From contig CALHZT010000252.1 in the NCBI GenBank assembly GCA_938040995.1, forward strand, positions 1 through 42,998: a stretch of DNA of 42,998 nt, written 5' to 3'. The stretch comes from an uncultured Pirellulaceae bacterium. GTDB lineage: Bacteria > Planctomycetota > Planctomycetia > Pirellulales > Pirellulaceae. This document shows, piece after piece, positions 39,863-42,693 of the stretch. Position numbers and translations under genes: made by a program. Each line of letters starts with the position of its first letter. The first letter of the stretch is position 1. A model generated the notes under the pieces. That model saw only the letters and a list, made by a program, of their open reading frames with translations, ran no database searches and had not been told where the DNA came from.

Positions 39863-40039
39863 TCTCGTTTGGTAGCATGATGAAGAGAAACTGGGACGTT
39901 CATTAGGACATGTATGGTACTCACTACTCCATCACCTAACCAGTCGCGGATTCGTGCGAAGCCGCCTCGAGAAGATTTTGCATTATCTAACGCATTCAGT
40001 AACATCAGGGCAGCAGCAGATCCTCAACAGGAACTCAAC

Positions 40040-41269
40040 ATGCGCCGTTCAGCACACCCCTTCGGTTTCGACTTTCGAGGCTTCTTTCAATCGATTCGGG
40101 CACACGCACCAGTGATTGTCATTGTTGCGACGCTTACCTGTTCATCGGCGATCGCGGGGGAATTCGATCTCGACGAGTTTGAGCAATTGCACCGATCGCT
40201 TGCCCCTGCGGCTGAAGCGTGGCAGTCGATACCTTGGCATTCCAATCTGACTTCGGCGCAGCTGGCAGCCATTGAACAGAACAAGCCCCTGTTTATCTGG
40301 GCAATGGACGGCCATCCACTGGGATGCACGTGAAACAACGGCGTGGTCGACCGTGCGTTGACCTTCTCAGATTCCGATATCGTTCGCATGCTGAAAAACG
40401 ACTTCATTCCGGTTGCCATCGACCAGTTTAACCAACGACAGCAGCGGGACGCTGAAGGAGATTTCTACCGGAAGATCGCAAAGCAGGGGCCCCGGGCAGA
40501 CTTCACCAAAACGACGCAGGGGCGATACGTCTGTACCGCGACGGGAAAATTGTTGGCCTACAACAACAATCGGGGGCCAGATAAGATCAAACGATTGATG
40601 CAAGAATCTCTGGAATCGTACAAGTCAGAATCGCTGACGGGCGCCGTTCCGATTGCTTCCAGTGAACGCGACGAGAGGTTCACGATTCAACCACCGAAAG
40701 ACGGGTTGATTCTTCGGGTCCACACGAAAGTCCTTGGCGGGTACGAACCGCGAACTGACTGGACGTCGACTTTTGTGACTGCGACCGGCCGCGACAATGT
40801 CTGGCTGACCAAAGATGAAGTATCAGCGATCGCTGCCGTGGCAGGTCACGGCGGAACATTCTCCGCAAAGCTCGCCCGGCGATTCGCCCGATGGCATTTC
40901 ATCGATAACACGCGAGGCGAACCGCATCGCTGGAGCAACGAAGAAGTCAGGCAAATTGACATACGAGTCGACAAGCAGGGGCTTCTAAGCGGTTCAGTTC
41001 ATCTTGAGACCGACGATGGCAAGCAGGGTTTCAAGGCAGAATTGCTTGGACGTGTCAAATCGTCGCAGAATGAAAATGGTGCGGCGATGATTACGCAGTT
41101 CGATGTCGTTGTGAAAGGCGAGTTTTGGGGGCAGGGCCGTTTCACGCATCACGGCCCAAAAGGAAAATTCCCCTTGGCGATTGGATTTCGAATCGCCGAT
41201 GGATCCGATCCGTCGGACAAGATCCCGCCGTATGGAACCAAAGGCTGGGCAGGTGCCTACTTCGAATGA
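40040..41269 (+). CDS. Candidate selenoprotein B: secreted thioredoxin-like protein with GCTU motif (Sec98)
   Basis: Read through one in-frame TGA (40331-40333), this is a 409-aa protein. ATG 40040 has AGGA nine nt upstream and gives a signal peptide (VIVIVATLTCSSAIAGE), so the longer frame from 39914 is rejected. Residues 60-170 look like a thioredoxin-like domain: LAAIEQNKPLFIWAMDGHPLGCT-U-NNGVVDR, then FSDSDIVRMLKNDFIPVAID, the same NKPLF...U...F layout as selenoprotein A. Cys96-Thr-Sec98 places Sec two residues after Cys, as CxU rather than CxxU, echoing the SCTU motif of deiodinases. The remaining 200 residues are beta-rich (TIQPPKDGLILRVHTKV, IDIRVDKQGLLSGSVHLETDDG) and not recognised. 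A SECIS-like hairpin follows the TGA. Sec probably performs peroxide, disulfide or other reductive chemistry outside the cytoplasm. It is convergent with selenoprotein C. Confidence 0.83.
40345..40363 (+). promoter_or_regulatory. Candidate bacterial SECIS hairpin of selenoprotein B
   Basis: GGTCGAC (40345-40351) pairs with GTTGACC (40357-40363): 7 bp with one G-U. The apical loop CGTGC (40352-40356) has G in the second position and starts 18 nt after the TGA. Alternative pairings involving CAACG and CGTTG (40336-40360) exist, so the exact fold is uncertain. Confidence 0.55.
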
Positions 41270-41364: not shown

Positions 41365-42693
41365 CTAGTTGCCCGGGCGAACTGGTCGCTGCCCGCCGCC
41401 TCGTGGTCCACGTCCACCACCACCTTGGCCTCGACCGCCTGGCCCCCGGCGACCGCCACGACCTCGGCGGCCAGCACCTCCGCGCCCGCCACGTCCGGCT
41501 CCACCACCGCGGCCTCCTCGCCCTCCGCCATTTCGGCTGCGGACGCTTCCGGCATCACGGTCACGTTCGAGCTGAAGTTCGTAGGACTGCGTGACGGCTT
41601 TGCACCAGCCTTTTTCTTTGTGACACGCAAAATAGCTCAGGCTCAACTTTAGCGGCTCGCCCGCCTTCCAGTCCTTGATATCAATCAGGAACTCACGAGG
41701 ATCGCTATCGGATTCGACCTCAACTTTCGGCCCTGTTCCAATTCGAGGCTCGATCGTCATTCCATCAGTGCCCGTCAATTCATATTTGACGGGTTCTGCC
41801 AGATTGTTCCAACAAACACCAAGCAACGGATCAAGCCGAATTCCCAGGTACAGTTTGCCAGAACCGTTCCGCAAAAGCTCCGAGTCGGCTTCGGGTCTGA
41901 CCTTCGCATAAAACGGCGACTCACTATCATCGCTTGCCGTTGATTTGATCGGCGACATCTGGCCAGGAATTTTTAGAGCCGGCACCACACCGGTTGCCGC
42001 AATTTCTTTTGACTTGTTATTTACCTTGAGATTAAGATCTTTGACGCTGGTAGGCCCCGGAGTTTTGCCAGTCAGCGTTTCAAGGTCTTTCCGAAGTGTC
42101 GCCGGCGAGCACCAGTCTCGCATGCGAACGATCTTTCCTTCCGGATCGAAAACGAATTCCGGGTTGTTCATACCGCCGAGCTGCTTCTTGAGCTCGTTGC
42201 TGATATTGTCACACAGCCATGGCATGGTGACGCCTTCGTAAACGCGTTTCGCTTCGGCAATATGAAGCAGTCGTTCTTCAACGGTGACCGGATTTACATA
42301 ACCGTTCATCTCTGGATGTGCCAACGCCTTGTAAACGAAATGGAACTGAACATCGAGAGGGGCAAAGTCACGATAGATAGCCTCCAGACTGGAGACGTTG
42401 CGGAGGAAAGGCGGTCAGGTAAGGCACCCAAATACGACCACCGAATACGTGCCTTTGAGGGAAGCCGTGTCGAAGGGATTGCCTTCTGAGTCCAGGACTT
42501 TAACTTCAGGCATCGGACTGCCGATTTTCAGTCCCGAGCTCTCAAGTCGATCCGAACCAGCACTTCCTGGTCCGCCGCCTCGTCCTCCCCGACCAGGACC
42601 GAATCCTTGCCCAAATGACATTTCGACAAACGAGGTCGCCAATGCGACGGACATCACCCAGACGATCCAGGCTTTGGCAAAGCGATACTGCAC
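41365..42693 (-). CDS. Candidate selenoprotein C: secreted deiodinase-like protein (Sec93) with DsbD-alpha-like domain
   Basis: Read through one in-frame TGA (42417-42415), this is a 442-aa protein. GTG at 42693, with AGGGA eight nt upstream, yields a good signal peptide (AKAWIVWVMSVALATSF). A Gly/Arg linker follows (GFGPGRGGRGGGPG), then a thioredoxin-fold domain: LKIGSPMPEVKVLDSEGNPF, SVVVFGCLT-U-PPFLRNVSSLEAI, FHFVYKALAHPEMNGY and PEFVFDPEGKIVRMRDW. Iodothyronine deiodinases have FGSCTUPPF followed by an EAHxxDGW segment, so the match covers the Sec site and the downstream His region. Here Gly-Cys-Leu-Thr-Sec replaces Ser-Cys-Thr-Sec, giving CxxU. Residues of about 260-385 are a beta domain with Cys357 and Cys364 (YFACHKEKGWC), like the redox pair of DsbD alpha. 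The tail (388-442) is RGG-rich. The role is probably reductive, and dehalogenation is possible. Confidence 0.88.
42380..42396 (-). promoter_or_regulatory. Candidate bacterial SECIS hairpin of selenoprotein C
   Basis: On the minus strand GTCTCCA (42396-42390) pairs with TGGAGGC (42386-42380): 7 bp with one G-U. The apical loop GTC (42389-42387) starts with G, 25 nt after the TGA. It is the most clear-cut of the three hairpins. Confidence 0.65.

What the first reader, a model, noticed from the sequence alone, without database searches (positions are those of the whole stretch)
41365..42693. Deiodinase-like selenoprotein with FGCLTUPPF active site
Seen: two minus-strand open frames in the same phase are separated by a single TGA, and the joined protein reads VVVFGCLT-U-PPFLRNV, then FVYKALAHPEMNGY. 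Known: animal iodothyronine deiodinases have FGSCTUPPF with a downstream EAHxxDGW-like segment, and TGA encodes Sec there. Inferred: this is a secreted bacterial relative, perhaps reducing halogenated or peroxide substrates rather than thyroid hormone. A standard annotation would split it into two fragments and lose the active site.
Basis: partly seen in the sequence, partly recalled or inferred. Interest (0 to 1): 0.92.

Follow-up and report, generated by a model that had tools for sequence, protein, structure and literature searches.

The report
Exported two-domain bacterial selenium redox enzyme
This gene, which normal annotation would cut in two at a stop codon, encodes a probably exported bacterial enzyme with selenium at its active site and what looks like its own built-in electron-delivery domain; it belongs to a widespread family related to, but distinct from, the thyroid-hormone deiodinases.

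Summary
In detail: window 41365-42693 (minus) is one gene interrupted by TGA at 42415-42417, inside FGCLT-U-PPF. It is very probably a selenoprotein. Of 95 family genes read, 92 have TGA in that column and 3 have Cys. A hairpin 25 nt after the UGA is fixed at synonymous sites and shows compensatory changes, as a bacterial SECIS should. The genome has tRNA-Sec, SelB and SelD; SelA was not found in this 86.5%-complete assembly. The 'deiodinase' label is only partly right. The thioredoxin-like domain is sister to, but separate from, bacterial deiodinase-like proteins, scores below Pfam's deiodinase cut-off, has CxxU, and has Leu or Ile in place of the EAH Glu. I infer an exported peroxide or disulfide reductase in which Cys90 resolves oxidised Sec93 and the C-terminal Cys357/Cys364 pair re-reduces it; the substrate is unknown. 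No Pfam or NCBIfam model names the family, and a 2026 inventory table has no fitting row.

The parts
41365..42693 (-). Whole selenoprotein gene, GTG start to TAG stop, 442 aa with U93 (ATG 42750 and TTG 42759 are alternative starts)
42607..42693 (-). Probable export signal, residues 1-29 (hydrophobic stretch ending SFGQ)
   Evidence: read by eye; homologues have similar hydrophobic N-termini; no signal-peptide program was run
42067..42525 (-). Thioredoxin/peroxiredoxin-like catalytic domain, about residues 57-209
   Evidence: AhpC-TSA over its Pfam cut-off; model and Foldseek
42424..42426 (-). Codon of Cys90, proposed resolving thiol (C-x-x-U)
   Evidence: Cys in 81 of 81 rows
42415..42417 (-). 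TGA, selenocysteine codon (U93)
   Evidence: TGA in 92 and TGT in 3 of 95 genes
42380..42396 (-). Proposed bacterial SECIS hairpin (GUCUCCA-GUC-UGGAGGC), loop starts 25 nt after the UGA
   Evidence: synonymous fixation and covariation; folding energy alone is not significant
41554..41961 (-). C-terminal DsbD-alpha-like beta-sandwich domain, about residues 245-380
   Evidence: PF11412 matches 41 of 70 members though not the window's own; hhalign to E. coli DsbD; fold
41623..41625 (-). Codon of Cys357, first Cys of the C-terminal pair
   Evidence: Cys in 81 of 81 rows
41602..41604 (-). Codon of Cys364, second Cys of the C-terminal pair
   Evidence: Cys in 81 of 81 rows
41368..41538 (-). Gly/Arg-rich C-terminal tail; homologues have other tails, often EF-hands
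   Evidence: EF-hand models match 8 of 15 members

Best explanation
A probably exported selenoprotein of a distinct thioredoxin-fold family. Supported by sequence: (1) UGA 42415-42417 is a selenocysteine codon served by a SECIS hairpin 25 nt downstream (about 0.97). (2) The catalytic domain is thioredoxin/peroxiredoxin-like, sister to bacterial deiodinase-like proteins, with a C90-x-x-U93 active site (about 0.95). (3) A C-terminal DsbD-alpha-like domain carries an invariant Cys pair, C357/C364 (about 0.85). Inferred: (4) Sec93 attacks an oxidised substrate outside the cytoplasm, most likely a peroxide or a disulfide, and Cys90 resolves the oxidised selenium as a selenenylsulfide, as Cys124 does for Sec126 in human DIO1. 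(5) That bond is reduced within the molecule by the C357/C364 dithiol, which is recharged by a membrane DsbD/CcdA-type transporter, so the enzyme carries its own electron-relay domain (about 0.6). The confidence given is for the whole chain (1)-(5).
For: Codon: TGA 92, TGT 3 of 95 genes. SECIS: codons +7 to +11 after the TGA nearly frozen at synonymous sites in 82 distinct genes; wobble bases of Val+7 and Glu+11 pair as C-G 65, U-A 11, U-G 2, C-A 0; 90.2% of pair cells standard on 73 distinct rows. Machinery: tRNA-Sec 71.4 bits, SelB, SelD; the one Cys carrier among the 60 relatives, G013, has neither a tRNA-Sec match nor a strong SelA. SelA-like gene directly upstream in 3 of 80 loci. Domains: Trx/Prx-like; DsbD-alpha-like. 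The four residues C90, U/C93, C357 and C364 are invariant in 81 of 81 rows, and 18 of 80 proteins have no other Cys. The same C-terminal domain ends another TGA-interrupted redoxin protein, L028. DsbD_TM proteins: 2 in the genome. DIO1 mechanism: PMC9141512, abstract and passages.
Against: SelA not found in the genome with two models, nor in G002, another TGA carrier that is 99% complete. Folding energy of the SECIS region is no better than in control windows, Rfam has no match, one internal stem pair is C-A in 47 of 73 rows, and two slid control versions have more doubly changed cells (20 and 14 against 11), one of them also a higher covariation score. PF11412 does not match the window's own domain, its Foldseek matches are weak and mixed, and hhalign to DsbD has probability 21% only. 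No operon links the gene to a reductase or a substrate.
Confidence: 0.55

Rival explanations
1. A bacterial deiodinase in function: a reductive dehalogenase of iodinated or other halogenated aromatics.
For: Best PDB sequence match is DIO3; sister of deiodinase-like proteins; DIO-like fold; DIO1 also pairs Sec with a nearby Cys (PMC9141512).
Against: Below the PF00837 cut-off, CxxU instead of FGS[YF]TU, and no EAH Glu. True deiodinase-like genes occur beside it in some of the same genomes, e.g. G045 and G027. No neighbouring dehalogenation genes were recognised.
Confidence: 0.1
2. A thiol-disulfide reductase of the ResA/TlpA/DsbC kind for exported proteins, with selenium for speed; the same two-domain relay but no peroxide chemistry. 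This is the variant of the best explanation with a protein disulfide as substrate.
For: ResA structures are among the best fold matches; 12 of 15 members match the NCBIfam ResA model; DsbD alpha normally feeds such proteins (recalled).
Against: The second CxxC Cys of ResA/Trx is missing: U93 is followed by PPF. AhpC-TSA is the best Pfam match.
Confidence: 0.35
3. The TGA is a true stop: two separate proteins, a broken gene or a sequencing error.
For: SelA not found in the assembly; a degenerate copy exists in G004.
Against: Protein similarity runs across the TGA in every homologue aligned; TGA in 92 of 95 genes with Cys in the other 3; conserved hairpin; tRNA-Sec present.
Confidence: 0.02
4. 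The organism reads TGA as another amino acid generally (a changed genetic code).
For: None beyond the open frame.
Against: The only other residue in the column is Cys (3 of 3); 6 of 15 family genes read end at TGA; a tRNA-Sec gene is present.
Confidence: 0.01

Closest known systems
Bacterial deiodinase-like selenoproteins (PF00837; PMC1088965 of 2005; NCBIfam NF038285)
   Same: Thioredoxin-like fold, Sec at the aligned column, TPPF-type context, a conserved AHP segment; sister clade.
   Different: They have FGS[YF]TU and an invariant EAH Glu; none of the 11 aligned shows the C-terminal domain in the description of A4 or PF11412. The present family is CxxU and scores 19.4 bits on PF00837 (cut-off 27) and 34.8 on NF038285 (cut-off 250).
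Animal iodothyronine deiodinases (DIO1-3)
   Same: Fold (DIO2 TMt 0.78, DIO3 0.71); Sec with a nearby Cys that can form a selenenylsulfide (PMC9141512).
   Different: The nearby Cys is at -2 in DIO1 and at -3 here; no EAH Glu; this protein has a second redox domain and is probably exported and soluble.
Peroxiredoxins / AhpC-TSA, including Sec peroxiredoxins
   Same: Best Pfam match, over the cut-off.
   Different: The PxxxTxxU motif given for Sec peroxiredoxins (PMC13188914) is absent: the -3 position is Cys.
ResA/TlpA thiol-disulfide reductases
   Same: Fold of the catalytic domain (TMt up to 0.87).
   Different: No Cys three residues after the catalytic residue; the partner Cys lies three residues before it.
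DsbD alpha domain (PF11412)
   Same: C-terminal domain: weak to moderate sequence match in 41 of 70 members, Ig-like fold, Cys pair aligned with the E. coli pair.
   Different: Here it is the C-terminal part of a soluble Sec protein instead of the N-terminal part of a membrane transporter.
DipZ C-terminal region (M. tuberculosis, 2hyx)
   Same: Best Foldseek E-value; match spans both domains of the model.
   Different: Whole-chain superposition is poor (rmsd 14, TM 0.37); no Sec (recalled).
TsoB, rhodanese/DsbD fusion-like selenoprotein (NF045694, listed in PMC13188914)
   Same: A Sec protein described as DsbD-fusion-like (table row only).
   Different: Rhodanese rather than thioredoxin-like, UxxxxU motif; NF045694 was not among the NCBIfam matches of the window's family.

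Membership tests
Bacterial selenoprotein (UGA decoded by SECIS) | In-frame TGA whose column holds only Sec codon or Cys in homologues | tested here: met
   TGA 92, TGT 3 of 95 genes
Bacterial selenoprotein (UGA decoded by SECIS) | Conserved hairpin just after the UGA with a small loop containing G | tested here: met
   energy alone not significant and two slid controls rival it on double changes; loop criterion as in PMC1088965 (passages)
Bacterial selenoprotein (UGA decoded by SECIS) | tRNA-Sec, SelA, SelB and SelD in the genome | tested here: inconclusive
   tRNA-Sec, SelB, SelD found; SelA not found in an 86.5%-complete assembly
Bacterial selenoprotein (UGA decoded by SECIS) | Selenium in the protein | not testable with these tools
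   needs 75Se labelling or mass spectrometry
Deiodinase family (PF00837) | Score above Pfam's gathering cut-off | tested here: not met
   19.4 bits against 27; deiodinase-like proteins of relatives 100-118 bits
Deiodinase family (PF00837) | FGS[YF]TU-type active site (FGSCTU in animals) | tested here: not met
   Cys at -3 in 81 of 81 rows against Ser, Ala, Asn or Gly in the 12 deiodinase-like rows shown
Deiodinase family (PF00837) | Glu of the EAHxxDG-like segment | tested here: not met
   Leu 80, Ile 1 of 81 rows; Glu invariant in 11 of 11 deiodinase-like rows; the His is kept in both
Deiodinase family (PF00837) | Reductive deiodination | not testable with these tools
   needs an enzyme assay
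Peroxiredoxin (AhpC/TSA) | Score above Pfam's cut-off | tested here: met
   30.3 bits against 26
Peroxiredoxin (AhpC/TSA) | PxxxTxx(C/U) peroxidatic motif | tested here: not met
   sequence is VVVFGCLTU; motif from PMC13188914
DsbD alpha domain (PF11412) | Sequence match to the family | tested here: inconclusive
   41 of 70 members, best E 3.2e-6, but 0 for the window's own domain; hhalign to E. coli DsbD E 0.001, probability 21%
DsbD alpha domain (PF11412) | Ig-like beta-sandwich fold | tested here: inconclusive
   beta model, pLDDT 87.4; DsbD alpha chains among the best 50 but all E above 0.001 and mixed with other Ig-like folds
DsbD alpha domain (PF11412) | Catalytic Cys pair at the aligned place | tested here: met
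   pair in 81 of 81 rows, aligned with the E. coli pair

The most novel reading that the evidence does not exclude
A self-contained selenoenzyme outside the cytoplasm: a Sec active site recharged inside the same polypeptide by a DsbD-alpha-like dithiol domain that draws electrons across the membrane. The design may have arisen more than once, here with CxxU and in the L028-type redoxin with UxxC. It would be a largely undescribed selenoprotein family spread over Planctomycetota, Acidobacteriota and Verrucomicrobiota and seldom found in a Cys form.
Probability: 0.5. Interest if true: 0.75.

Novelty: new variant of a known kind. Interest (0 to 1): 0.64.

Why it matters
Standard ORF calling splits the TGA members at their active site. 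The family is sizeable (206 confirmed relatives in one scan), keeps Sec in 92 of the 95 genes read, and carries what looks like its own electron relay. That makes two questions testable: how selenium enzymes outside the cytoplasm are recharged, and what the deiodinase-type active site did before thyroid hormones, since this clade is sister to the bacterial deiodinase-like proteins.

Tried and rejected
Folding energy as proof of a SECIS: rejected. The window's segment has z 0.04; 92 TGA genes average z -0.39 against synonymous shuffles, no more than control windows elsewhere in the genes (-0.07 to -0.54), and a lenient SECIS-shape filter passed 68 of 92 TGA genes but also one of the three Cys genes, L094. 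Synonymous fixation and covariation carry the argument instead. Rfam: no match at E 1. SepSecS as a stand-in for SelA: none in G000; 24.2 bits in G002 (over the cut-off, but controls such as B. subtilis and S. elongatus also ring). Conserved operon: none; the commonest neighbours within 4.5 kb look like sulfatases (my reading of the sequence) in 15 of 80 loci, partly one Acidobacteriota group, and I draw nothing from it. SelA-like neighbours were recognised by a motif that I recalled, not by a model. PDB sequence search with the C-terminal profile: nothing at E 10. NCBIfam matches of some members to XopAW, lanmodulin and transaldolase models I take to be their EF-hand tails and chance, and set aside. 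tRNA-Sec matches of 50-59 bits were set aside because the model also rings in control genomes; the 60-bit and 366-bit cut-offs were chosen after seeing the lists. Rows dropped: the degenerate G004 copy (L024/L037) from the 95 genes; 10 of 92 TGA genes with identical 63-nt segments merged; only the best 80 of 206 loci were kept by the tool, and one of its two search patterns covers the Sec column, so that set is not free of choice; A3 used 70 of 81 rows; the SECIS alignment A5 used 79 of 92 TGA genes; the tree used 22 of 95 family genes.

Full report
OBSERVATION. Translating 41365-42693 minus with TGA as U gives one 442-residue frame with a single internal TGA at 42415-42417 (U93), in VVVFGCLT-U-PPFLRNV. 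Standard ORF calling gives two fragments. The protein has a hydrophobic N-terminus ending near SFGQ (a probable export signal, read by eye), a Trx-like domain (about residues 57-209), a second domain (about 245-380) and a Gly/Arg-rich tail.

CONSERVATION OF THE CODON. A six-frame search of 60 genomes (the window's own and 59 relatives) gave the gene and close homologues (E 5.5e-77 or better) in 16. In 15 of these, the window included, the column is TGA; in one (G013, L022) it is TGT, Cys. One of the 15 TGA copies (G004) is degenerate. A scan of a collection with one genome for each of 84,980 species gave 206 confirmed relatives, of which the best 80 were kept: 78 have TGA and 2 TGT. By record title, counted by me, the 80 are 45 Planctomycetota, 17 Acidobacteriota, 13 Verrucomicrobiota, 1 Poribacteria, 2 'Bacteroidetes' and 2 unassigned; one is titled a complete genome (L108). 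Six of the 15 genes read end at TGA, so UGA still means stop elsewhere.

SECIS. For 82 distinct TGA genes, codons +7 to +11 after the TGA are nearly frozen at synonymous sites: Val is GTC or GTT (78 of 78), Pro CCC (51 of 51), Ser AGT (49 of 49), Leu TTG or CTG (80 of 80), Glu GAG 71 and GAA 11, with z 18-47 against each gene's own codon usage; 80 scorable columns at +32 to +139 average z 2.0 (sd 4.0), though one of them reaches 29. They form GUYYCCR-GUY-UGGARRC, with G first in the loop in 82 of 82, 25 nt after the UGA. The wobble bases of Val+7 and Glu+11 covary: GTC/GAG 65, GTT/GAA 11, GTT/GAG 2, GTC/GAA 0 (Fisher p 1e-11, relatedness not corrected). On 79 aligned sequences (73 distinct), 90.2% of pair cells are standard against 28-58% for slid versions, with 3 doubly changed pairs and 11 such cells (shuffled mean 1.6, 0 of 500 as high). 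Against: the number of further pair types is not unusual (101 of 500 shuffles as high), the slid versions -1 and +1 have 20 and 14 doubly changed cells and -1 a higher covariation score (0.206 against 0.182), one internal pair is C-A in 47 of 73, RNAalifold's consensus energy is only -1.61 kcal/mol with 5 of the 7 pairs, and folding energy is unremarkable. The three Cys homologues lack the conserved sequence. [quoted passage not shown]

MACHINERY. In the window's genome (86.5% complete, 425 contigs): tRNA-Sec 71.4 bits (cut-off 47; ARAGORN calls it SeC), SelB 366.5 bits with its neighbours in the frame (cut-off 242), SelD 270.6 bits (cut-off 125). SelA was not found with TIGR00474 or PF03841. 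Over the 60 genomes (counted by me, with cut-offs of 60 bits for tRNA-Sec and 366 bits for SelA chosen after seeing the lists), 13 of 15 TGA carriers have tRNA-Sec and 13 of 15 have SelA; each of the 15 has at least one. The two without SelA (G000, G002) have tRNA-Sec, and the two without tRNA-Sec (G005, G014) have SelA. Of the 45 other genomes, 19 have tRNA-Sec. G013, with the Cys form, has no tRNA-Sec match and only a 49-bit SelA match. A SelA-like gene lies directly upstream on the same strand in 3 of 80 loci (L085, L095, L107). Assembly gaps are the simplest reading of the missing SelA, but G002 is 99% complete, so I leave it open.

THE FIRST DOMAIN. Pfam: AhpC-TSA over its cut-off (30.3 against 26), Redoxin and T4_deiodinase below theirs (24.7 against 26.6; 19.4 against 27); at E up to 1, of 15 members AhpC-TSA matches 15, Redoxin 15 and T4_deiodinase 14. 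NCBIfam: for the window only NF038285 'deiodinase_rel', 34.8 bits against 250; it matches 15 of 15 members. Some of the same genomes also hold deiodinase-like genes with FGS[YF]T-TGA; three PF00837-positive proteins scanned (L038 and L031 with TGA, L027 with Cys) score 100-118 bits. In a 38-row tree the present family (22 rows) is one clade (100/98) and the 12 deiodinase-like rows another (97/77), sisters with 4 TlpA/AhpC-like rows outside. Animal deiodinases were not in the tree, and the program warned of long outgroup branches. The AlphaFold model (81-row alignment) has pLDDT 93.9 and pTM 0.89. Foldseek: DipZ C-terminal region first (E 7.6e-11, poor whole-chain fit), ResA TMt up to 0.87, DIO2 TMt 0.78 at rmsd 2.1, DIO3 TMt 0.71.

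THE SECOND DOMAIN. All 80 loci carry a C-terminal Cys pair (spacing 6 in 66, 4 in 11, 5 in 3), and in the alignment both Cys, C90 and U/C93 are invariant in 81 of 81 rows. PF11412 (DsbD N-terminal, alpha) matches 3 of 15 full-length members (best E 0.0076) and 41 of 70 isolated domains (best E 3.2e-6), though not the window's own. The domain folded alone gives a beta-sandwich, pLDDT 87.4; Foldseek finds nothing at E 0.001 or better, a FixG-related protein first (0.007), and several DsbD alpha chains (3pfu probability 0.99, E 0.02) among other Ig-like folds. hhalign to E. coli DsbD aligns the two Cys pairs (E 0.001, probability 21%). The same domain (hhalign probability 97%, E 1e-10) ends another planctomycete protein, L028, whose redoxin domain has an in-frame TGA in ASW-U-RGC (one locus, and Pfam does not list DsbD_N for it). 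DsbD_TM membrane proteins exist in the genome (2 matches).

MECHANISM. Supported by sequence: Sec column, SECIS, four invariant redox residues, two domains. Inferred: export; Sec93 as the attacking group; Cys90 as resolving thiol, by analogy with DIO1, where Cys124 forms a selenenylsulfide with Sec126 that glutathione then reduces (PMC9141512, abstract and passages; PMC11592359, passages, describes a similar Prx-like cascade for deiodinases in general); reduction by C357/C364; recharging by a DsbD-type membrane protein. I put peroxide reduction and disulfide reduction at similar odds and dehalogenation at about 0.1.

NOVELTY. Bacterial deiodinase-like selenoproteins have been known since 2005 (PMC1088965, passages) and appear again in the 2008 ocean survey (PMC2398784, passages). 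Selenoproteins of planctomycetes were described in 2016 (PMC4807772, passages; its candidate table was not seen). A 2026 inventory of 119 families and subfamilies (PMC13188914, Table 1 read) has no row combining a deiodinase or redoxin domain with CxxU or with a DsbD-alpha domain; its deiodinase-like and redoxin rows are given as UxxC, and TsoB is a rhodanese/DsbD fusion-like protein. Searches on planctomycete selenoproteins, deiodinase-like proteins, DsbD with redoxin, and the motif GCLTU listed no paper that I recognised as describing it; only an open-licence part of the literature was searched, mostly at the level of listings, and older 'deiodinase-like' counts may include members. I therefore call it a new variant of a known kind.

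Noticed in passing
window 39914-41269 (+), TGA at 40331-40333: A second TGA-interrupted gene, convergent with this one, with GHPLGCT-U-NNG. Seven other of the 60 genomes hold strong homologues (E 2.6e-39 or better), each with one TGA inside, and all 8 share the motif. No Pfam or NCBIfam model reaches its cut-off. A second selenoprotein candidate.
   Followed up: partly
L028 424-1806 (+), TGA at 592-594: Another planctomycete gene joins a TGA-interrupted redoxin domain (ASW-U-RGC), TPR repeats and the same DsbD-alpha-like domain. One locus only.
   Followed up: partly
genomes G000 and G002: Both have tRNA-Sec and a TGA member of this family but no SelA by PF03841 above 43 bits; G002 is 99% complete. 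Assembly gap or an unusual Sec synthase.
   Followed up: partly
L136 (G027:C104): A divergent deiodinase-like gene with KGGYT-TGA-PPF in a long frame that continues past the Trx domain; long branch in the tree.
   Followed up: no
L024/L037 (G004:C33): A degenerate copy of the family: the two halves lie in different frames and extra stops occur, while the Sec-column TGA is kept.
   Followed up: no
homologue tails, e.g. L015, L016, L043: EF-hand repeats are attached to the core in many members (8 of 15), also to the deiodinase-like L027; their role is unexplained.
   Followed up: no
L085, L095, L107: A SelA-like gene lies 209-267 nt upstream of the family gene on the same strand.
   Followed up: partly
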